IMG/VR virus record: IMGVR_UViG_3300048592_001229
Coordinates: 1 to 26,330 of that record
Reading direction: 5' to 3' (one strand)
DNA: 26,330 bases
From: a virus
Shown here in pieces: positions 4,853 through 13,351 of this stretch. A model generated the notes under the pieces. It saw nothing but the letters and a program-made list of their open reading frames with translations. It did not search any database and was not told where the DNA came from. Positions within the stretch are counted from its first letter, which is position 1. Each line of letters begins with the position of its first letter. The translations under genes and the position numbers were made by a program.

Positions 4853-4939
4853 GGGAAACGCAGCCTGCCGGACTCAACTCGTGCTGGCGAAGACGCTTGG
4901 GGTGCGCTACAGTGGCACGTCGCGCGCGTGACGCTCACA

Positions 4940-4981
4940 TTCCCAAGCTGGATGTCGAGGGTTCGAATCCCTTCGCCCGCT
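4940..4981 (+). other. attP: Phage attachment site: 3' part of a tRNA-Gly(CCC) gene
   Basis: The block reads as the 3' part of a glycine tRNA. It has anticodon loop TTCCCAA (4940-4946), anticodon-stem 3' strand GCTGG, variable loop ATGTC, T stem/loop from GAGGG (4957) to CCCTT (4973), acceptor 3' strand CGCCCGC and discriminator T at 4981. The bases just upstream (TCACA) cannot pair with GCTGG and no D arm or 5' acceptor strand is present, so this is not an intact tRNA. Integrating phages carry exactly such 3' tRNA copies so that integration restores the tRNA. The stretch 4853-5148 holds no other gene; a TACAGT hexamer at 4908 with a poor -35 is the only promoter hint. Confidence 0.85.
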
Positions 4982-5059
4982 TACGCAAGTCCTTGCGGCT
5001 GCCTCGGTTGGTAGTCTCCGGGTGCGCGGGGATGAGTGCTCCGGCGCTCGTCTCCGCGA

Positions 5060-5070
5060 ACCGTGGTGAG
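5060..5070 (+). promoter_or_regulatory. Possible repressor half-operator upstream of the integrase
   Basis: ACCGTGGTGAG matches eleven consecutive bases of the operator candidate between the repressor and Cro-like genes (7516-7526). It lies about 80 bp before the chosen integrase ATG. The second half is only weakly mirrored (AACC to GGTT). Repression of int by the lysogeny repressor would be logical, but binding is unproven. Confidence 0.3.
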
Positions 5071-5148
5071 GTTTGGAACGTGGGAAGAAGCACGAACGGA
5101 CGTTCCGGGTCGCCGAAGCAGGCGAGGCCTGGCCGTCGCCCTGCGCGC

Positions 5149-6390
5149 ATGGCGAAGGGCATCGAGATCCGCTGGTCGGCGGGTCGATGGGTGTTCCGCG
5201 CGCGGCTGGAGATCGGCGCGCGGGTGATGACCGGACCCTGGCACGAGCGCCAGGAGCTGGCCGTCGAGGATCGTCGTCAGCTGATCCTGAACCGGGAGCG
5301 GCTCCCGGACCGGGTGCTGACCTTCGGGGACGCGCTGGCGCGGGTGGTGGCCGATGCGCGGGAGCGCGGGCTGCCCGAGGCGACGGTGCGGAAGCACTAC
5401 GTCTGCCACACCGACTACCTGTCCCGGGTCTGGCGCGTCGACCTGCGGATGGTCGAGATCGACGCGGCGCAGGTGCGGATGTTCGTCCGCCAGGCCGTCG
5501 AGGAGTGGGGCCGCTCGCCGAACACGCTCCGGCAGAAGGACCTCCCGATCCTCGAGCAGTGCTACCGGGCGGCAGGGCTGAAGAGCCCGGTCGCCGCGGT
5601 CCGCGCCGAGATGCGAAGCCTGCTGAAGCCCCGGCCGCCCCGGATGAAGTTCTTCGAGCCGGCCCAGGTCGTCGAGCTGATCGACCGGATGCGGAACGCG
5701 GAGCTCTGGCACCCGAAGCCCTGCGAGGGGTGTGAGAAGCTCGACGAGGCGGCGGCGGCCGGCTGCCAGGTCTGCGGCGGCTGGGGCACGGTCGACGATC
5801 ACGATCGGCCGCCGCGGTCCCTGCCGGCCCGGGAGGCGGACGCCGACCTGGTCGAGTTCCTGGCGAGCACCGGCGTCCGGTCGGGCGAGCTCGGCCGGGT
5901 GCGCCTCGAGGACGTCGACCTCGAGCGCGGGGCCGTCCACGTGGCGGTCCCGAAGGACAAGGGCAACCCGCGCGACCTGGTCGTGCCGCCGAGCCTGGCG
6001 CCGGTCGTCGAGCGGCTGGTGCGGCGCGCCGAGGGCCTGGCCGCGGAGGGGGCGAACCCGGGCCGGCTGCTGGTGCCGAGCGTCGAGTCGTGGCTCGGGA
6101 ACATCGGCCGCCGCTGGCAGGTCCGACTCCGCGACCGCCGGCTGAGCGGCCGGGCCCTGCGCCACACCTTCGTCACGGGGCTGCTCGTCTCGGGCGTGAA
6201 CCCGAACGACGCCCGCGACCTGGCAGGGCACAAGAGCCTGAAGACGACCGACCGGTACACCCATCTCGTCAGCGGCCGGCGCGAGAGCGCCGCGAAGAAG
6301 TGGTCGGAGCACCTCGAGCTGCTGCGGGAGCAGCAGCGGCCGCCGGCACCCGCCGACGACGAGGATCCTGAGGACGGACCGAGTCCGTGA
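5149..6390 (+). CDS. int: Tyrosine-type phage integrase with inserted zinc ribbon
   Basis: This 413-residue protein from ATG 5149 catalyses site-specific recombination between attP and the host tRNA-Gly gene. An N-terminal arm-binding region (about 1-50) precedes a SAM-like core-binding domain (about 57-155) and a catalytic domain (about 165-392). Visible active-site residues are Arg244 (TGVRSGEL), Lys271 (beta-hairpin KGNPRDLVVP), Arg338 (ALRHTF), His361 (AGHKSL) and Tyr370 (DRYTHL). The first His of the usual HxLRH box is Arg335. Residues 192-209 add a CEGC...CQVC zinc ribbon not found in standard integrases. No strong ribosome-binding site marks the start; in-frame GTG 5080 or ATG 5032 are alternatives. 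It lies directly beside attP and converges with the excisionase gene, overlapping its end by 122 bases. Confidence 0.93.
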   Translation: MAKGIEIRWSAGRWVFRARLEIGARVMTGPWHERQELAVEDRRQLILNRERLPDRVLTFGDALARVVADARERGLPEATVRKHYVCHTDYLSRVWRVDLRMVEIDAAQVRMFVRQAVEEWGRSPNTLRQKDLPILEQCYRAAGLKSPVAAVRAEMRSLLKPRPPRMKFFEPAQVVELIDRMRNAELWHPKPCEGCEKLDEAAAAGCQVCGGWGTVDDHDRPPRSLPAREADADLVEFLASTGVRSGELGRVRLEDVDLERGAVHVAVPKDKGNPRDLVVPPSLAPVVERLVRRAEGLAAEGANPGRLLVPSVESWLGNIGRRWQVRLRDRRLSGRALRHTFVTGLLVSGVNPNDARDLAGHKSLKTTDRYTHLVSGRRESAAKKWSEHLELLREQQRPPAPADDEDPEDGPSP

Positions 6391-6613
6391 CGGCGGCGGC
6401 GAGGGCCTGCATGTCGCCCTCGCGCTGCCAGCTGCCCTCCTCCCAGCGCTGCACGTCCGCGGCCCGGAACCGGACGATCCGGCTGCGGAGGCCGCCGACG
6501 CGGAGTGCTGGGGGGAACAGGCCGCGGTCGACCAGGCGCATCACCTGGCGGCGGGTGATCCCGTAGCGCTGGCAGACCTGCTCGAGCGCGACGAACTCCT
6601 GGGTCTCGGTCAT
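6269..6613 (-). CDS. Excisionase-like MerR/AlpA-type DNA-binding protein
   Basis: This 114-residue protein starts with ATG at 6613, ATGA-coupled to the gene before. Residues about 8-62 form a MerR/AlpA-like winged helix: ALEQVCQRYGITRRQVMRLV, then LFPPALRVGG, then RSRIVRFRAADVQRWEEG. This is the common form of phage excisionases and AlpA regulators that bend attachment-site DNA. The last about 45 residues are Ala/Arg-rich low complexity and lie antisense to the end of the integrase gene, so they may be unstructured. Its place in the Cro-like operon, opposite int, supports a role in excision. Confidence 0.75.
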   Translation of the reverse strand: MTETQEFVALEQVCQRYGITRRQVMRLVDRGLFPPALRVGGLRSRIVRFRAADVQRWEEGSWQREGDMQALAAAVTDSVRPQDPRRRRVPAAAAAPAAARGAPTTSSRRSRAGR

Positions 6614-7050
6614 GCCGCTGGCTCCTCGTGCAGCTCGCGCAGCGCCCGCTCGATGGGCTCGGCGAGTAGCTCGATCGGGATCTGGCGGTCCGGCCAGGCG
6701 GCCTGGCGCCGCAGGACGACCTCGAGCGCCGAACGGACGGACTCGGCGAAGGCCGCGTGCCGCTCGAGGCGCTCGGCGACCGGCCGCAGCCGGACGAGCC
6801 GGGCGAAGACCATCGCGAGCCAGCCGGCGCCGTCGACGCACTCCTGGGCGGCCTCGTCGAGCAGCTCGACGGCGGTCGCGGACGTCCAGCTGCGCTCGCC
6901 GTACTCGACCGCGCCGACCTCGCTCCGCGCCCGGGCCTGGGCGGCGAACTCCTCGACGGCGGCCGGCTCGGCGCCGCGGCGCGCCGCGACGCCATCCAGC
7001 GCGGCCAGGAACGCGTCCAGGAGCGCCCGGCGGTCCTCGACGGCGATCAT
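6610..7050 (-). CDS. Unknown helical phage protein of the Cro-like operon
   Basis: This 146-residue protein starts at ATG 7050, which has a good ribosome-binding site (GGGAGG); a longer start at 7095 lacks one. It is all-helical in appearance. Residues 47-85 read VGAVEYGERSW, then a helix with spaced acidic residues (LLDEAAQECVDGAGWLAM). The YGxRSW plus ExxxE/D pattern recalls phage MazG-like or related all-alpha nucleotide pyrophosphohydrolase-fold proteins, but the metal-binding residues are not clearly complete, so I leave it unnamed. It overlaps both neighbours by ATGA and should be made together with the excisionase. Confidence 0.65.
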   Translation of the reverse strand: MIAVEDRRALLDAFLAALDGVAARRGAEPAAVEEFAAQARARSEVGAVEYGERSWTSATAVELLDEAAQECVDGAGWLAMVFARLVRLRPVAERLERHAAFAESVRSALEVVLRRQAAWPDRQIPIELLAEPIERALRELHEEPAA

Positions 7051-7187
7051 CGGCGGCCTCCCGCGGAAAGCGACAGCGCCGCCGGCCAGCACCATGCAAG
7101 CCGGCCGGCGACGCCATCACACCCGCGCGCGGTTCGGTCAGAACGCGCGGGCACCACCATCAGGGAGTTCGGGAGCGACCGGGTCAT
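7047..7187 (-). CDS. 46-residue protein embedded in a coupled operon
   Basis: The frame runs exactly from an ATGA overlap with the Cro-like stop (7184-7187) to an ATGA overlap with the next start (7047-7050). This is the main reason to believe it is translated. The product begins MTRSLPNSLMVVPARSD and has a short hydrophobic stretch with two Trp near residues 31-40 (LAWCWPAALSL). No family is recognised. If not functional as a protein it still serves to carry ribosomes from the Cro-like gene to the next one. Confidence 0.5.
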   Translation of the reverse strand: MTRSLPNSLMVVPARSDRTARGCDGVAGRLAWCWPAALSLSAGGRR

Positions 7188-7444
7188 GCCGAGGCCTCCG
7201 CGCCGGTGCGGGGCTGGGTGCCCCGGATCCGCGTGCACTCGATCGCGGCGCGCAGCTCGGGCGGCGTCACGTGCAGCGCCTGGCCCAGCGCGCGCCACAG
7301 CCTCGGGTGCGGCCGGAAGTGGCCGGCCATCCAGCGGCTCAGCGTGCCCTGCGAGACGCCCACCTCGGCGGCGATCTCGCCCAGCAGGCAGGCCCTCCGG
7401 GCCGCCTCGCCCTCCACCAGGTCGCGCAGGGAAACGTCGCTCAT
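7184..7444 (-). CDS. Cro-like helix-turn-helix repressor
   Basis: This 86-residue protein starts with ATG at 7444. Residues 20-41 form a helix-turn-helix (LLGEIAAEVGVSQGTLSRWMAG) followed by helices RLWRALGQALHV and PPELRAAIE. It is divergent from the larger repressor gene, with an operator palindrome between them, the classical lambda-type lysis/lysogeny switch. There is no ribosome-binding site at a useful distance from its own ATG. The strong AAGGAGG lies 25 bases upstream, in front of a six-codon leader ORF whose stop overlaps this start (ATGA), so translation is probably by coupling. It heads the operon that ends with the excisionase. Confidence 0.8.
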   Translation of the reverse strand: MSDVSLRDLVEGEAARRACLLGEIAAEVGVSQGTLSRWMAGHFRPHPRLWRALGQALHVTPPELRAAIECTRIRGTQPRTGAEASA

Positions 7445-7461
7445 GTGCTGGGAAATACCAT
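7441..7461 (-). CDS. Six-codon leader ORF coupled to the Cro-like gene
   Basis: ATG at 7461 encodes MVFPST and stops at 7441-7443, overlapping the ATG of the Cro-like gene as ATGA. The perfect AAGGAGG (7476-7470) is eight bases from this ATG. A GTG three bases upstream of it is in the same frame. Such a leader would deliver terminating ribosomes to the next start and could tune Cro-like output. Confidence 0.5.
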   Translation of the reverse strand: MVFPST

Positions 7462-7484
7462 CACCTGCGCCTCCTTTCCACCCC

Positions 7485-7527
7485 TTGACGAACTTTCCCG
7501 TCCGAGTATGGTCTCACCGTGGTGAGA
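7485..7527 (+). promoter_or_regulatory. Repressor promoter with overlapping palindromic operator
   Basis: Rightward -35 TTGACG (7485-7490) and -10 TATGGT (7507-7512) are separated by 16 bp, pointing at the repressor gene. A perfect palindrome TCTCACCGTGGTGAGA (7512-7527) covers the expected transcription start. On the other strand a weak -10 CATACT (7510-7505) and -35-like TGCCGC (7533-7528) would place the same palindrome in the spacer of a leftward promoter for the Cro-like operon. Additional TCACC/GGTGA half-sites lie at 7461-7465 and 7566-7570. Confidence 0.65.
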
Positions 7528-7569
7528 GCGGCAGGAAACGCTTTTGTGCGGGATGTAGCGTGCACGGTG

Positions 7570-8007
7570 ATGCCGCACCCGTCCCCCAGCAACGCTCGGA
7601 TCGCGCGCAGACTGATCGCCGCCCGCGGCAAGCGCACCCAGCTCGATGTGGCCCAGGCGCTTGGCGTCGATCGCGGGACGATCCGGTCCTGGGAGACGGG
7701 TCTCAGCTCGCCGAAGGCCACAGATCTCGTCCGACTCGTCGAGATCTACGGCTGCTCGGCGGATTGGCTGCTCGGCCGCGACATCGGGCACGAGATCGTC
7801 GCTATCGTCGACGCGGACCTCGAGGCCGAGCTCCACTCCACCGACGACCTCGAGTACGCGCTGGCGCTCCTGCCTCGGCTGAGCGTGAGGATCAGCGACG
7901 GACTCGTGGTCGTGCCCGACAAGCACGAGCTCGCCGCGAGGATCGCGGCGGCCAACCGCCGGATCCGAGAACTCCAGGCACGAGACGAGCACCGCGGGAC
8001 ACGGTGA
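7570..8007 (+). CDS. CI-like lysogeny repressor without peptidase domain
   Basis: With ATG 7570 the protein has 145 residues. Residues about 8-65 are an XRE-family helix-turn-helix: ARIARRLIAARGKRTQLDVAQALGVD, then RGTIRSWETG, ending with CSADWLLGRD. The remainder (about 75-145) is a beta/helix segment with a terminal charged helix (AARIAAANRRIRELQARDE), probably for dimerisation. There is no S24 peptidase Ser/Lys pair, so RecA-stimulated self-cleavage is not expected. A GTG at 7519, at the predicted transcription start, could give a leaderless 162-residue form, as in lambda cI from PRM. It is first in a five-gene rightward operon. Confidence 0.82.
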   Translation: MPHPSPSNARIARRLIAARGKRTQLDVAQALGVDRGTIRSWETGLSSPKATDLVRLVEIYGCSADWLLGRDIGHEIVAIVDADLEAELHSTDDLEYALALLPRLSVRISDGLVVVPDKHELAARIAAANRRIRELQARDEHRGTR

Positions 8008-8435
8008 AGACGATGAAGCAGAGCGGGGAGATGCGATCCAGCGAGGAGCGGCCGTCGAGCTCGCCCGACTTCGTGCTGCAGACGCTGCTCAGGTCGCCCC
8101 CGCCGCGCCGCCGGCGGCCGCTGCCGCAACGACCCGCCAGCCAGCCGCCTTGGCTCTTCGCGGCGTCTGTGGCCTGCGCCCTGGTGTCCCTGGTCTCCGC
8201 GGGTGTCGCCCACGTCCAGGCCGGTGCGGCGGACGTGACCATGCCCCAGGAAGAGGCCATCCGGACGCTGAGGACGCTCGAGGACCGCCAGCTGCGGCTC
8301 GCGGCGATCGAGTCGCTGCGCCGCCATGCGATCCAGGCGGTGCGACGCCTCGAAATGACCCGGGACGTCGACATATTCGTCGGCGACCACGCCGCTGAGG
8401 CGCTCGCCTCGATCCAGCAGGAACTGCAGCGATGA
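8004..8435 (+). CDS. Single-pass membrane protein, repressor-linked
   Basis: This 143-residue protein starts with GTG at 8004 overlapping the repressor stop (GTGA); ATG 8013 is the alternative. The N-terminal 48 residues are Ser/Pro/Arg-rich and basic (PPPRRRRPL), suggesting a cytoplasmic tail. A membrane helix follows at 49-71 (WLFAASVACALVSLVSAGVAH). The C-terminal 70 residues are helical and charged (EEAIRTLRTLEDRQLRLAAIESLRRH) and should be periplasmic. No family is recognised. Cotranscription with the repressor means expression in the lysogen, so a superinfection-exclusion or surface-modifying role is plausible but inferred. Confidence 0.65.
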   Translation: MKTMKQSGEMRSSEERPSSSPDFVLQTLLRSPPPRRRRPLPQRPASQPPWLFAASVACALVSLVSAGVAHVQAGAADVTMPQEEAIRTLRTLEDRQLRLAAIESLRRHAIQAVRRLEMTRDVDIFVGDHAAEALASIQQELQR

Positions 8436-8704
8436 CCGACGAAGAGGCCCCCCTACGCATCTCTGTGTACCCCGACCCCGTGCACCGGGGCGACACCATT
8501 GAGGTCTGCTACGACTTCTCCGGTCTGCAGATCGGCCAGGCGACGATCTACGTGAACTTCGACCCACCCGACGGGTCGCAGGGCTTCCCGATCTCGCCGA
8601 ACGACCCGTGCTTCGAGATCCCGATCCCGAGCACGGCCCAGGGCGTCGACATCATCGACCAGCCACGCAACAGCCAGCCGTGGATCTCCACGATCCTCCC
8701 ATGA
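8432..8704 (+). CDS. Small beta-rich protein, repressor-linked
   Basis: This 90-residue protein starts with ATG at 8432 (ATGA overlap) and ends in another ATGA overlap at 8701-8704. It has no signal peptide or membrane helix and looks like a compact beta sandwich: LRISVYPDPVHRGDTIEVCYDF, then QATIYVNFDPPDGS, then FEIPIPSTAQGVDIID. Such a pattern is seen in Ig-like or fibronectin-like modules. Two Cys are present (in VCYDF and PCFEI). No family is assigned. Its place between two membrane proteins suggests that the three form one complex or pathway. Confidence 0.6.
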   Translation: MTDEEAPLRISVYPDPVHRGDTIEVCYDFSGLQIGQATIYVNFDPPDGSQGFPISPNDPCFEIPIPSTAQGVDIIDQPRNSQPWISTILP

Positions 8705-9039
8705 TCGCCAAGCTCGCACTCTTTCTGTTCTGGGCCTGGACGCTGATCTGCGTCGGATGGGTAGGCCTGATGTTCTGGACCACCCGCGAGGTCAACGAAA
8801 AGTCTCTGTCAGACCTCGCGCAGCGCCACCAGAGAGGCGAGGTAACTGCGCAGGTCGTTTATGAGCAGATCCAAGTTCAGCAGGGAGCCAGTGTCATCGC
8901 GAACGGCGGCAACTGCCTGCTGACGGGGTCGGTCTGGGCCGGGCCTGCAGCCGTGTTGATCATCATCTACCTGCTGGCCAGACCGAAGACCGTCGTGGTA
9001 GTGGAAAGGAGCCCTCGCAGTGGACGCACCAAGACCTGA
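8701..9039 (+). CDS. Two-helix membrane protein, repressor-linked
   Basis: This 112-residue protein starts with ATG at 8701. Membrane helices lie at about 4-26 (KLALFLFWAWTLICVGWVGLMF) and about 73-93 (LTGSVWAGPAAVLIIIYLLA). They are joined by about 46 polar residues (SLSDLAQRHQRGEVTAQVVYEQIQVQQG) and followed by a basic C-terminal tail (RSPRSGRTKT). By the positive-inside rule the tail, and therefore the N-terminus, are cytoplasmic and the loop periplasmic. Small two-helix proteins expressed from prophage repressor operons are frequently superinfection-exclusion factors; here that is inference from position and topology. Confidence 0.65.
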   Translation: MIAKLALFLFWAWTLICVGWVGLMFWTTREVNEKSLSDLAQRHQRGEVTAQVVYEQIQVQQGASVIANGGNCLLTGSVWAGPAAVLIIIYLLARPKTVVVVERSPRSGRTKT

Positions 9040-9256
9040 TTGCCCCCAGCATCACGGCGAGCTTCGCCGCGTCGGAAAAGGTCTCGACATGGCCGTCGTC
9101 GCGCTGCATTGGTGTGAGGACACGCGCGCTGCGGAAGATCACCTACTCGGCCCGGAGCGAATCAACCAGCTGTTCGCGGCTGGTCCTCTGCCGTGCGGCG
9201 GAATGCGCGCAGCCTGTCCGCTCGCCGAGTCGCAGCGGGACTCGGATCAGACCTGA
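9020..9256 (+). CDS. Small Cys/His-containing protein, last gene of the repressor operon
   Basis: This 78-residue protein starts with GTG at 9020, eight bases after a good ribosome-binding site (AAAGGAG, 9005-9011), and overlaps the previous gene by 20 bases. It has Cys and His clusters (DCPQHHGELRRVG, LHWCED, LPCGGMRAACPLAE) that could bind a metal ion. There is no membrane helix. No family is recognised. The stop lies inside the hairpin that ends the operon, so the gene and terminator overlap. Confidence 0.55.
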   Translation: MDAPRPDCPQHHGELRRVGKGLDMAVVALHWCEDTRAAEDHLLGPERINQLFAAGPLPCGGMRAACPLAESQRDSDQT

Positions 9257-9278
9257 TCCGGAGCCTGCGGCTGCTTTT
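9243..9278 (+). terminator. Terminator-like hairpins between convergent operons
   Basis: CGGATCAG and CTGATCCG form a perfect inverted repeat (9243-9260) with a very short loop. A second small hairpin (AGCC/GGCT, 9262-9272) is followed by TTTT at 9275-9278. It overlaps the last codons of the rightward operon and lies just before the end of the leftward late operon. The T run is short, so efficiency is uncertain. Confidence 0.5.
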
Positions 9279-9281
9279 CTG

Positions 9282-9770
9282 TCAGTGCTTGAGGCGCTTT
9301 CGCGCGTCGTCCGGCTTGCCAGCCTCGGTGTAGTCGAGGCCCTGCCGGTCGCCTGGCTCGATGATATCGCCGTCGAACGAGCCGTGGGCGGCCCGCGCCA
9401 GGTGGGTCCACGCGACGAGCTCCTCGCCGACGAGCCAGAGCCGCAGGTCCTGCGGCCCGCACTCCGGGGCCGTCGCACGGACGTCCGCCGACCAGGCGTA
9501 GCGGTCGAAGTCGGTGATCCACGACGTCCGGTAGCTCCCCTTCCCGGGCTCGCCGATCTCCAGGATCGACCAGCCGAAGGTCGGGAGCTGCTCGCGCAGG
9601 ACGCTCCAGGCTCCGGCCTCGACGGCAGCCGCCGTCGGCGGCGGGCCGAGCTCGGCCAGCAGGATCGTGCGGAGCGCCGGCGTCGGGCGCCTGGTGTCGC
9701 GGATCAGCGCGTCGCAGCTGGCCAGGATGGCGGCCAGGCAGCAGACCACCGTGCGTGCAGCGTTTCCCAT
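9282..9770 (-). CDS. Lipoprotein of unknown function, last gene of the late operon
   Basis: This 162-residue protein starts with ATG at 9770. A lipoprotein signal peptide ends in the lipobox LASC with Cys19; the following Asp20 is, in enterobacteria, an inner-membrane retention signal. The mature part has a mixed fold with WSILEIGEPGKGSY, DLRLWLVGEELVAWTHLARAAHG and a basic C-terminus (DDARKRLKH). I recognise no family. As the distal gene of a transcript carrying tail and lysis-like genes it could be a late accessory or lysogenic-conversion lipoprotein. A 62-bp gap with no visible signal separates it from the gene before. Confidence 0.65.
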   Translation of the reverse strand: MGNAARTVVCCLAAILASCDALIRDTRRPTPALRTILLAELGPPPTAAAVEAGAWSVLREQLPTFGWSILEIGEPGKGSYRTSWITDFDRYAWSADVRATAPECGPQDLRLWLVGEELVAWTHLARAAHGSFDGDIIEPGDRQGLDYTEAGKPDDARKRLKH

Positions 9771-9832
9771 GCCGGCAGCCTACGCGCCCCGGCTGGGGGG
9801 ATTCGACCGCCGTCCAGGATCCGGACTGCCGT

Positions 9833-10111
9833 TCAGGAGAGCGCCAGGTCGAGCACCCGGCCGGCGATCCGGCGGATCAGGCCGTCATAGGCCTGCCAAC
9901 CCCTGATCTCGACCGCGCCGGCGATCTGGAGCGCTCGGGCCCGGACGTGCCGGAGGTGGCCCTCGACGTCCTCGCCGGCGAGCGCGCGCGCCGCGAGCAG
10001 GACGCCGTCCCGGACGCACTCCTCGAGCGCGGCCTTGTCCTCCGCGGTGAAGGCTGCCCTGGCGTCGGCCAAGAACCGGTCGACCTCGCCGGGGATGTCG
10101 AGCCGGCTCAT
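9833..10111 (-). CDS. Small helical unknown protein in the lysis-like cluster
   Basis: This 92-residue protein starts with ATG at 10111, ATGA-coupled to the lipoprotein gene before it. It is all-helical and charged: EVDRFLADARAAFTAEDKAALEECV, then VEGHLRHVRARALQIAGAVEI, then YDGLIRRIAGRVLDLALS. It has no membrane helix or signal peptide, so it is cytoplasmic. It could be an antiholin-type or regulatory protein by position, but nothing in the sequence proves this. Confidence 0.6.
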   Translation of the reverse strand: MSRLDIPGEVDRFLADARAAFTAEDKAALEECVRDGVLLAARALAGEDVEGHLRHVRARALQIAGAVEIRGWQAYDGLIRRIAGRVLDLALS

Positions 10112-10380
10112 CGGCCCGCCTCCACCTGCTCCGGCACCGGCAGCCCCAGCGCCAGGCCGGTCGCGTCGAGCCGCGCGCGCCAGGCGACCAGGTTCTTCAA
10201 GCGCAGCTCCTTGTCCTCCGGACGCATCGCCGGGTCGGCCTCGACGTAGGCCCACCACTCGACGCCGATCGAATCGTACTGGGCCCGCTCGGCCTGGTAC
10301 TGGGTGACGGTGGTCGGGGCCGAGCACGCGGACAGCGCGCACAGGACCGCGAGGGACAGGGTCAGGATCGTCTTCGTCAT
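10108..10380 (-). CDS. Small lipoprotein, candidate outer-membrane spanin (o-spanin)
   Basis: This 90-residue protein starts with ATG at 10380 (ATGA overlap). The signal peptide MTKTILTLSLAVLCALSAC has lipobox LSAC with Cys19 followed by Ser, which allows sorting to the outer membrane. The mature chain of about 71 residues is short and mostly helical (PAMRPEDKELRLKNLVAW). It directly follows a gene for a protein with one N-terminal membrane helix plus coiled coil, which is the Rz/Rz1 pattern of two-component spanins in phages of Gram-negative hosts. Ordinary phage lipoproteins are the alternative. Confidence 0.55.
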   Translation of the reverse strand: MTKTILTLSLAVLCALSACSAPTTVTQYQAERAQYDSIGVEWWAYVEADPAMRPEDKELRLKNLVAWRARLDATGLALGLPVPEQVEAGR

Positions 10381-10679
10381 CGTTGCTGCCTCACGTGTTC
10401 GTCGAGCCGCTCGCGCAGCTTGTCGACGCTAGCCTTCGCCTCGCCAAGGCCGAGCGATACCCGCTCGACCCGGTCCGTGATCTGGCTCGTGACCTTCTCG
10501 TGGGCGGTGGTGATCCGGTCGAGCGACTCCCGGAAGTCACCGCGCTCCGCGGCCCGCTCGGTGCGGACCTCCTCCCGCATCTCCTTCAGGCTCCGCAGGA
10601 ACAGCACCACGACCACGATCACCGAGGTCGTCGCGCCGCCTGCCGTCAGGAGCCGTAGAACGCTGTCGTCGAGTCCCAT
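10377..10679 (-). CDS. Membrane protein with coiled coil, candidate inner-membrane spanin (i-spanin)
   Basis: This 100-residue protein starts with ATG at 10679 (GGAG upstream). It has one N-terminal hydrophobic helix at about 12-29 (TAGGATTSVIVVVVLFL), followed by a long charged coiled coil up to the C-terminus (RAAERGDFRESLDRITTAHE, then DRVERVSLGLGEAKASVDKL). With the ATGA-linked lipoprotein behind it, this resembles an i-spanin/o-spanin pair. The same topology is also seen in some small holin-like phage proteins, so the call is provisional. It follows the beta-helix gene after 23 bases. Confidence 0.55.
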   Translation of the reverse strand: MGLDDSVLRLLTAGGATTSVIVVVVLFLRSLKEMREEVRTERAAERGDFRESLDRITTAHEKVTSQITDRVERVSLGLGEAKASVDKLRERLDEHVRQQR

Positions 10680-10702
10680 TAGGTTGCTCTCCACCGATGT
10701 AA

Positions 10703-13351
10703 TCACTCGCCCAAGAACCTCACCACCACCACCGCGGTCGGGTCCACTATCTCGGATCCAGACAGGACCACGAACCACTGATCGCCCGGCTCAAGATTCA
10801 CTTCCGCCGACCACTCCCCATGCACGAGCACGAGACCTGGTGATACCAGCACCTGCGTGGGGATCACCATCACCGCAGGCAACGCAGCCGCTGGAGCGAT
10901 CGTCTGCGCGACAGCTGATACTGCTTGGGCGGGCAGTGGAGCGGTCGCTCCTCCGGCCACCGCAGGGGACAGGCCTTGGACCCTTCCGCTGGTCGTCTGA
11001 GTCGGCAGGGCCGGCAAGGCTGCCCCGGCAACCACAGGGGACGTAGTGTGCCCCAGGCCTCCGCTGGTCTGGGAGGGACTGCCGGGTCTCGCGGTCCCAG
11101 CACTCGCTGGGACGAGGCCGTGTGCTCCCCCTCCGGTGACCTGCACAGGCAGGGGCGGGAGGAAGAGACCAGCGATCGCCGGGGACAGAGTGACGCCGAG
11201 AGGACCGACGGTGACCGTCAGTCCAGGAGGTGCTGCGAGTCCGGTGGTGGCCGGACTGGCGACCTGGGCGACCGGGCCGAGAGACTGGATCGGTGCCACA
11301 CTGGTGGCGAGCCCACCGGTCGCGATCGAGAGGGTGTGCCCGATCCCCCCAAGGGTCTGGGAGGGTGCCGCGGGGGCGGCGGGGGCGCTCGAGGCGCCCG
11401 CGGTGTGCCCGATCCCCCCGAGGGTCTGGGAGGGTGCCGCAGGGGCGGCGGGGGCGGCAGCCGAGGGACTGGTGGTCTGCTCGGTCCCAGCCGAGACCAC
11501 GACGGCCTCGTCGTAGGCGCCGATCGACCAGAAGGACCGAGCGTTCCCGGCGATGTCGTCGTCGATCCGCAGCGAGAACCGCCGCGAGTTGCCGTCGAGA
11601 TCGCTCTCGGCGAGCGGGCGGAAGTCGCCGCCATCGGCATCGACGAACGATCCGGCAGGGGTCGCGTTCAGCCAGTAGGTGGTGCCGGCGACGAACTCCG
11701 AGGTGTCGGTGCCGCTGACCACGATGTAGTCGAGGGCGCCGGGGCCGGCGTTGATGTAGATGACCGGCTCGACTGAGTTGAGAGCGCAGTCGATGAACGC
11801 GCAGTTGTAGCAGAAGAAGCCGCCCTGGCCGGTGCGCAGTCCTGGGCCGCCTGTGTTATAGGCGACGCAGTTGTAGGTGCGCGAGTAGCTGGGCAGGGTG
11901 TAGCCGGTGACGGTTCCAACGCCGTTGCCGTGGACGATGCAGTTGCGGATGCGGGCCCAGTTGGCGGCAGGGAACGAGCAGTTGATTCCGCCCTGGGTCC
12001 ACCCGCCGACTGCGATCGCGTTCGACTTCAGGTAGACGCCTTCGAGGACCTGGTAGAGGGCCTCGAGGCTGATGCCTCGCTCCATCCCTGCGCCGGTCCA
12101 CGTCGCGATGACCCCGAAGTGGCCCATCTCGCCGAAGGCCTCCAGGTTGGAGACCGGCCTCCGGGCGAGCGCGAGGTCGAACACAAGCTTGGTGCCGGTG
12201 TCAGCTGCAGGGTCATACCCAGCACCTTCCAGACGTCGGTAGCGTGCCGTGTCGACAGTGGCACCACTGATCGTGAACGAGTCAGTGTAGCTGAACGTCT
12301 CGGCCGCCATGACGCCGATGTGGCGCTCGTCGGCGGTCACGAGGTCGTCGTCGGTGTCGGCCTCCCACAGCTGCGGGGTCGCGTAGTAGCCGGCGGATCC
12401 GATGGTCCTCGACACCACAGTGGCACTCTCGCGGTCGATCGCTCCGTAGGCCCAGGCCTCGCGCGTATCACCGTAGATGTCGGTGGTGAATGAGGCCGAC
12501 AGGTCTGACGCACCTGAGGTCAGTGGTCCCAGCCTGAGAGGCCTCAGGTCCAGGTTGTCAGGGTCCGAGTAGCACGCCGCCGCCGTCTGCGAGGTCAGAG
12601 AGCCCGTGCCCGTTGCCGTGGCGTCGTAGGAGACGTTGTAGCTCTGGGTGATGGTCCCGTTGAACGCTGCGGTGATCGCGCTGAGGCAGACGCTGTTGAT
12701 GACCGTCGCCGTCCCAGAGGACCGATGGAACCCGTAGCGTAGCAGGCCGTGGGCCGTGCAGTTCTGGGCGGTCTGCGTGCCGTAAGTCAGGACAAACCCG
12801 TCGATCACGGTGTTGTTCGCCGATACCCCGTAGCCGACGGCCACCGAGTTCCGAACTGTCGAGTCCTGCGACGCGTCGAGGTGGAAGCCGCTCGCGGTGA
12901 CTGCCGTGCTCGAACTGTTGGTGATCATCACCGTGCAGCCGTCGATCAGCTGCCCGACCGGTGACAGGTCGTAGTAGACCTGGATCCCGCGCACCCCGCT
13001 GACCCCGTTGACGTCGACATCTACTCCGATGCCACGCAACGTCAGGTAGGCCTCCCTCATGCTGATGCAGGCTGAATTAACCGAACCAGCCTTGAAGTGG
13101 AACACTACCCCGGACTGCGTCCGCGGGTCGCACCTCACACCATCCGTGGTCAGCGTCCGGTTGCGAGTCGCGTCGGTGGTGGCCCCCGCGATGACGAGCG
13201 ACGAGGAGGTCGGCCCGTAGGCCTGCGAGGCCACGAGCCCGAAGTGCTGCTGATCGAGCGTGACGAGGTCGTTGTCGGTGTCCGCCTCCCAGTTCGTCGC
13301 GTTCGAGTAGGTCTTGCCCGATCCGATCGTGCTGTTCACCACCGTGACCAT
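10703..13351 (-). CDS. Beta-helix tail-associated protein with two similar domains and a Pro/Ala repeat tail
   Basis: This 882-residue protein starts with ATG at 13351 (TGATG overlap). Two related right-handed beta-helix domains occupy about 1-310 and 311-614. Each begins with an almost identical element (TIGSGKTYSNATNWEADTD, and TIGSAGYYATPQLWEADTD), then DLVT..(Q/E)(Q/R)H(F/I)GV, typical of a family of phage and bacterial beta-helix proteins. Residues about 615-850 are Ala/Pro-rich repeats of about 23-30 residues with the motif PSQTLGGIGHT. The final 30 residues are a short beta domain. It is probably a late exposed structural protein, either receptor-binding spike or decoration. No catalytic lyase residues could be assigned. 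Confidence 0.75.
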   Translation of the reverse strand: MVTVVNSTIGSGKTYSNATNWEADTDNDLVTLDQQHFGLVASQAYGPTSSSLVIAGATTDATRNRTLTTDGVRCDPRTQSGVVFHFKAGSVNSACISMREAYLTLRGIGVDVDVNGVSGVRGIQVYYDLSPVGQLIDGCTVMITNSSSTAVTASGFHLDASQDSTVRNSVAVGYGVSANNTVIDGFVLTYGTQTAQNCTAHGLLRYGFHRSSGTATVINSVCLSAITAAFNGTITQSYNVSYDATATGTGSLTSQTAAACYSDPDNLDLRPLRLGPLTSGASDLSASFTTDIYGDTREAWAYGAIDRESATVVSRTIGSAGYYATPQLWEADTDDDLVTADERHIGVMAAETFSYTDSFTISGATVDTARYRRLEGAGYDPAADTGTKLVFDLALARRPVSNLEAFGEMGHFGVIATWTGAGMERGISLEALYQVLEGVYLKSNAIAVGGWTQGGINCSFPAANWARIRNCIVHGNGVGTVTGYTLPSYSRTYNCVAYNTGGPGLRTGQGGFFCYNCAFIDCALNSVEPVIYINAGPGALDYIVVSGTDTSEFVAGTTYWLNATPAGSFVDADGGDFRPLAESDLDGNSRRFSLRIDDDIAGNARSFWSIGAYDEAVVVSAGTEQTTSPSAAAPAAPAAPSQTLGGIGHTAGASSAPAAPAAPSQTLGGIGHTLSIATGGLATSVAPIQSLGPVAQVASPATTGLAAPPGLTVTVGPLGVTLSPAIAGLFLPPLPVQVTGGGAHGLVPASAGTARPGSPSQTSGGLGHTTSPVVAGAALPALPTQTTSGRVQGLSPAVAGGATAPLPAQAVSAVAQTIAPAAALPAVMVIPTQVLVSPGLVLVHGEWSAEVNLEPGDQWFVVLSGSEIVDPTAVVVVRFLGE
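11334..11456. repeat. 69-bp tandem duplication in the Pro/Ala-rich tail
   Basis: Two copies of a roughly 54-bp block starting GTGTGCCCGATCCCCCC begin at 11334 and 11403, exactly 69 bp apart (23 codons), with two visible mismatches. They encode the repeated peptide APAAPSQTLGGIGHT. The high similarity at DNA level implies recent duplication or ongoing unit-number variation. Confidence 0.8.

What the first reader, a model, noticed from the sequence alone, without database searches (positions are those of the whole stretch)
8004..9256. Four-gene repressor-linked operon: candidate new immunity or exclusion system
A single-pass membrane protein, a beta-sandwich protein, a two-helix membrane protein and a Cys/His protein are coupled directly to the repressor and closed by a hairpin, so they should be made in the lysogen. 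None has a recognised family. Genes in this position in temperate phages often block superinfecting phages or alter the cell surface. This is the strongest candidate for an undescribed system in the window.
Basis: partly seen in the sequence, partly recalled or inferred. Interest (0 to 1): 0.75.

Follow-up and report, generated by a model that had tools for sequence, protein, structure and literature searches.

The report
Repressor-linked orphan genes of temperate phage
An unknown temperate phage carries three (perhaps four) small genes of no known family in one transcription unit with its repressor, the place where lambda keeps its rexAB exclusion genes, so they are probably made in the dormant state and may protect or alter the host, but nothing here shows that they do.

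Summary
The arrangement is real. A CI-like repressor gene (7570-8007, +) lies opposite a Cro-like gene (7184-7444, -). It is followed by overlapping genes 8004-8435, 8432-8704 and 8701-9039, and by the strongest hairpin-plus-T4 site in the window (9229-9278). Gene 1 encodes a single-pass membrane protein. Gene 2 encodes a small acidic protein modelled as a seven-strand beta sandwich. Gene 3 encodes a two-helix membrane protein. The fourth "Cys/His gene" (9020-9256) is doubtful: it has a good ribosome-binding site but no coding signal, and an open frame of that length is expected from 31% of start codons in shuffled sequence.

No relative was found in Pfam, PHROGs, NCBIfam, PADLOC, 50,697 phage records, plasmids (genes 2-3), IMG/VR, or GTDB (genes 2-3). 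The IMG/VR and GTDB scans only reach close relatives. The operon is therefore orphan, and co-occurrence elsewhere could not be tested.

Position and strand match lambda cI-rexA-rexB, and prophage defence genes are known there. The best reading is a lysogen-expressed accessory operon acting at the envelope, superinfection exclusion first. It is not RexAB: there is no four-pass RexB-like protein and no sequence match. Defence itself is inferred from position and topology only. The organisation is ordinary for a temperate phage and the contents are unknown.

The parts
7184..7444 (-). Cro-like HTH gene (86 aa), divergent from the repressor and first of the leftward early genes
   Evidence: Pfam HTH_31 E 1.9e-7 and HTH_3 E 2e-6; coding frame score 0.33
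7485..7512 (+). promoter-like site TTGACG-16-TATGGT, the only one found in 6900-9900 on either strand
   Evidence: expected 0.1 per shuffle
7512..7527 (.). perfect palindrome TCTCACC-GT-GGTGAGA at the expected transcription start; candidate operator
   Evidence: 90 of 2000 shuffles of the intergenic region hold a palindrome this good
7570..8007 (+). CI-like repressor, 145 aa, N-terminal HTH, no peptidase domain detected (start could be GTG 7567; the GTG at 7519 is not backed by codon signal)
   Evidence: Pfam HTH_3 E 1.9e-11; NCBIfam DicA-like 1.1e-9, below cut-off; coding signal from about 7560
8004..8435 (+). gene 1: 143 aa, Arg/Pro-rich N-terminus, one membrane segment, helical C-terminal part; predicted N-in/C-out
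   Evidence: no family above cut-off
8432..8704 (+). gene 2: 90 aa, acidic (13 D/E, 3 K/R), no signal or membrane segment, modelled as a seven-strand FN3/Ig-like beta sandwich
8701..9039 (+). gene 3: 112 aa, two-helix membrane protein, predicted N-in/C-in
9020..9256 (+). gene 4 (doubtful): 78-aa Cys/His-containing ORF with AAAGGAG upstream of its GTG
   Evidence: no coding signal in any frame; length expected by chance
9229..9278 (+). terminator-like hairpin (core GGATCAG-ac-CTGATCC) followed by TTTTCTGT, between the operon and the convergent late gene ending at 9282

Best explanation
This is the lysogeny operon of a temperate lambda-tailed phage: a CI-like repressor followed in the same transcript by a cassette of three (perhaps four) orphan accessory genes. 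Shown by sequence: strand, overlaps, opposed Cro-like gene, promoter-like site, terminator-like hairpin. Inferred: the genes are made in the lysogen together with the repressor. Inferred, and less sure: proteins 1 and 3 sit in the cytoplasmic membrane, protein 2 is a soluble partner, and together or singly they change the envelope or respond at it so that other phages are excluded, by blocked DNA entry or, Rex-like, by a membrane effector with a cytosolic trigger.
For: Overlapping stop-start junctions and codon signal. HTH domains of the two divergent regulators. The larger regulator points away from the replication and early genes, as lambda CI does, and the smaller points with them. One promoter-like site upstream of the repressor and no other in 6900-9900. 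Strongest hairpin-T4 site of the window at the end of the operon. Same gene order and opposition as lambda cI-rexA-rexB (70). Precedent: P. putida prophage defence genes PP_5643-5644 lie just downstream of a Cro/CI repressor, with two further genes between (PMC12894663). Sbash, CarolAnn and Butters pair a cytoplasmic and a membrane protein, expressed in the lysogen in Sbash and Butters (PMC7542560). [quoted passage not shown]
Against: No homologue of any of the genes, so no co-occurrence, covariation or functional transfer. Membrane proteins in this position could do many other things. Gene 2 has no recognisable sensor or enzyme domain. No PADLOC match. The host is unknown and no transcription data exist.
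Confidence: 0.42

Rival explanations
1. Lysogenic-conversion cassette with no anti-phage role: the membrane proteins alter surface, transport or stress behaviour of the host to the benefit of the lysogen.
For: Same position and expression argument; two of three clear proteins are membrane proteins.
Against: Nothing specific favours any such trait; no family hit.
Confidence: 0.25
2. Regulatory appendage of the lysogeny switch: one or more of the proteins control the repressor (the 145-aa repressor has no detected self-cleaving domain, so induction needs another trigger), for example a membrane-bound sensor that releases or destabilises it.
For: Translational overlap of gene 1 with the repressor; no peptidase domain found in the repressor.
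Against: No sensor, protease or DNA-binding domain found in proteins 1-3; many short repressors work without such partners.
Confidence: 0.15
3. Abortive-infection pair of Rex type with gene 3 as pore-forming effector and gene 1 or 2 as trigger.
For: Position equals lambda rexAB and P. putida RexAB; soluble plus membrane partner.
Against: Gene 3 has two membrane helices, whereas RexB and its known analogues have four; no BLASTP match to RexA or RexB beyond chance; no DNA-binding domain in proteins 1-3.
Confidence: 0.1
4. Mostly non-functional or transient sequence: recently acquired orphan frames that matter little.
For: Gene 4 shows no coding signal; no relatives anywhere searched.
Against: Genes 2 and 3 have codon scores as good as the structural genes, with tight stop-start overlaps.
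Confidence: 0.08

Closest known systems
lambda cI-rexA-rexB operon
   Same: Accessory genes follow the repressor on its strand, opposite cro and the early genes; includes a membrane protein.
   Different: RexA is 279 aa and RexB a four-pass protein; here 143, 90 and 112 aa with one, none and two membrane segments; genes overlap here; no sequence match.
P. putida prophage P1 RexABpp (PP_5643-5644)
   Same: Defence genes downstream of a Cro/CI repressor, with further small genes in the same stretch (PMC12894663).
   Different: [quoted passage not shown] no such domain here. No direct sequence comparison was made.
Sbash gp30/gp31, CarolAnn gp43/gp44, Butters gp30/gp31
   Same: Small cytoplasmic plus membrane protein of a prophage (PMC7542560).
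   Different: Membrane partners have four helices; no tblastn match of our proteins to any of 50,697 phage records.
Membrane superinfection-exclusion proteins (T4 Imm, P22 SieA)
   Same: Membrane-associated proteins that stop DNA entry; topology of gene 3 would suit (T4 Imm and Sp block DNA injection, PMC11436027).
   Different: No sequence match; resemblance is of kind only.

Membership tests
RexAB-type abortive infection | position downstream of the CI repressor, same strand | tested here: met
RexAB-type abortive infection | four-pass membrane effector (RexB) | tested here: not met
   protein 3 has two hydrophobic segments, protein 1 one; RexB analogues have four
RexAB-type abortive infection | RexA-like DNA-binding trigger or sequence similarity to RexA/RexB | tested here: not met
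   no Pfam, PHROG, NCBIfam or PADLOC hit above cut-off; BLASTP at chance level
RexAB-type abortive infection | growth arrest or depolarisation on activation | not testable with these tools
   needs expression in a host
Superinfection exclusion protein (inner-membrane type) | membrane localisation | tested here: met
   hydrophobicity of proteins 1 and 3; prediction only
Superinfection exclusion protein (inner-membrane type) | sequence similarity to a known exclusion protein | tested here: not met
Superinfection exclusion protein (inner-membrane type) | blocks entry or plating of other phages | not testable with these tools
   needs plating assay
Lysogeny-expressed accessory (moron) operon | co-transcription with the repressor | tested here: inconclusive
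   anatomy agrees (promoter-like site, overlaps, hairpin); no transcript data
Known anti-phage defence systems (PADLOC-DB 2.0.0) | profile match of a system protein | tested here: not met
   only the repressor's HTH matched HTH-bearing models
FN3/Ig-like beta-sandwich domain (gene 2) | seven-strand sandwich fold | tested here: inconclusive
   AF2 single-sequence model pLDDT 71, pTM 0.58; best Foldseek E 0.02, TM 0.45-0.60 to FN3 domains; no sequence match

The most novel reading that the evidence does not exclude
Genes 1-3 form a previously undescribed three-part exclusion system: a soluble FN3/Ig-like protein that works with two small membrane proteins, expressed from the repressor operon of a phage lineage with no close sequenced kin found here.
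Probability: 0.12. Interest if true: 0.65.

Novelty: new member of a known kind. Interest (0 to 1): 0.3.

Why it matters
Genes linked to prophage repressors have repeatedly turned out to be defence or conversion genes. A three-gene orphan cassette in a phage without close sequenced relatives is a reasonable candidate for a screen, no more. If it proved to be defence, it would add a beta-sandwich plus two-membrane-protein design, unlike RexAB, to the systems encoded next to repressors.

Tried and rejected
Relatives of each protein in IMG/VR: none. The two hits to protein 4 (L002, L003) are chance: one 21-residue stretch in a gene whose product looks like the exonuclease part of a T7-type DNA polymerase, and one stretch antisense to a sigma-factor-like gene. 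Relatives of genes 2+3 in GTDB: none. A GTDB scan with a tail protein to learn the host: none. Kin phages through tail fibre J, tape measure, repressor and integrase in IMG/VR: none. tblastn of all four against phages and of genes 2+3 against plasmids: none. Searching cellular genomes was not possible because no host or genome handle could be reached. Rfam on 7000-10000: nothing. tRNA genes as a clue to the host or attachment site: none. Weak Pfam hits to DUF7555 and TMEM127 are below their cut-offs and were discarded. Foldseek of protein 2 against viral models gave no confident match. The lysis-cassette reading (a two-helix protein like a class II holin) was rejected because the operon is coupled to the repressor and opposite the late genes.

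Full report
Setting. The window is a linear 26,330-base virus record, about 70% G+C, with lambda-type tail genes on the minus strand (J, an L-like minor tail protein, tape measure), a tyrosine integrase on the plus strand ending at 6390, and replication-initiator-like and ParB-like genes on the minus strand at the left. Its host could not be found. J, tape measure, repressor and integrase have no relative in IMG/VR by the scans available, a tail-protein scan of GTDB found none, and there is no tRNA gene (29).

Anatomy. A CI-like gene (7570-8007, +; HTH_3 E 1.9e-11) and a Cro-like gene (7184-7444, -; HTH_31 E 1.9e-7) diverge. The larger one points away from the replication genes and the smaller one points with them, as in lambda. 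The only sigma-70-like site found in 6900-9900 lies upstream of the repressor (7485-7512). A perfect 7-bp-arm palindrome, TCTCACC-GT-GGTGAGA, covers the expected transcription start (7512-7527); 4.5% of shuffles of the intergenic region hold a palindrome as good. The repressor's stop codon overlaps the GTG of gene 1 (8004), and genes 1/2 and 2/3 overlap by ATGA. A long hairpin followed by TTTTCTGT ends the unit just before a convergent late gene. Of six TTTT sites in the window it has the strongest adjoining hairpin, although its energy is not remarkable for its composition. This is good anatomical evidence for one transcript carrying repressor and accessory genes; transcription itself is inferred.

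Are the genes real? Codon scores trained on the phage's clear genes favour genes 1, 2 and 3 in their own frames (0.27, 0.45, 0.28 bits per codon; best other frame 0.08, 0.04, -0.11). The sliding view shows the frame change at each junction, with the Arg/Pro-rich start of gene 1 less clear. A 24-base tandem repeat, a whole number of codons, lies in gene 1 (8304-8349). Gene 4 is different: no frame in 9040-9256 scores as coding, and 31% of start codons in shuffled sequence open at least 78 codons. Its ribosome-binding site (AAAGGAG) is the only argument for it, and its last codons fall inside the terminator stem. I treat it as doubtful.

What the proteins are. Protein 1 (143 aa) has one membrane segment after an Arg-rich start, so N-in/C-out by the positive-inside rule (established knowledge). 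Protein 2 (90 aa) is acidic, lacks a signal or membrane segment, and was modelled from its single sequence as seven strands (pLDDT 71, pTM 0.58). Foldseek lists FN3 and Ig-like domains first, but at E 0.02 and TM 0.45-0.60, so only the fold class is suggested. Protein 3 (112 aa) has two membrane helices (model pLDDT 65) and a basic C-terminus, so N-in/C-in. None has a family above cut-off in Pfam, PHROGs, NCBIfam or PADLOC. tblastn against 50,697 phages at E up to 1 found nothing, and plasmids nothing for genes 2 and 3 (67). IMG/VR and GTDB scans found no relative, but those scans need exact eight-residue words and would miss distant relatives.

Function. Lambda keeps rexA and rexB in this very place. 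P. putida prophage P1 has a RexAB-type system downstream of its Cro/CI repressor with two further genes between (PMC12894663). Sbash, CarolAnn and Butters pair a cytoplasmic with a four-pass membrane protein (PMC7542560). In Pseudomonas phage Shamal, which has a weakly similar repressor, the genes after the repressor are again unannotated. Position plus membrane topology makes superinfection exclusion the single most likely function, but the inference is a prior. The operon fails two RexAB features (four-pass effector; similarity or a DNA-binding trigger), so it is not filed there, though a Rex-like mode of action is not excluded.

Verdict. Repressor-linked orphan genes are common in temperate phages (general knowledge), so the organisation is of a known kind. 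What is unusual is the complete lack of relatives, which reflects an unsampled phage lineage at least as much as a new system.

Noticed in passing
10703-13351 (-): 882-aa late protein with two similar N-terminal blocks (both with a WEADTD(N/D)DLVT motif), a weak right-handed beta-helix match and a Pro/Ala-rich repeat stretch (SQTLGGIGHT); likely tail fibre or spike. No PHROG match.
   Followed up: partly
9282-9770 (-), 10108-10380 (-), 10377-10706 (-): Two lipoprotein-like genes (LASC and LSAC boxes) and a membrane-anchored coiled-coil-like protein after the fibre gene: possible spanin/holin cassette, suggesting a Gram-negative host; no endolysin recognised in the window.
   Followed up: no
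4897-6390 (+) and 6269-6616 (-): The integrase gene lies against the direction of the early genes, and its 3' end overlaps an AlpA/HTH_17-like gene (possible excisionase) on the other strand.
   Followed up: no
7441-7470 (-): A short leader frame (GTG-ATG-GTA-TTT-CCC-AGC-ACA-TGA) with GGAGG upstream overlaps the start of the Cro-like gene by ATGA; possible translational control of Cro.
   Followed up: no
L006 (MZ417522.1): Record of Mycolicibacterium phage J1 is filed under Microviridae but is 25 kb with a repressor-like gene weakly similar to ours; the taxonomy looks wrong.
   Followed up: no
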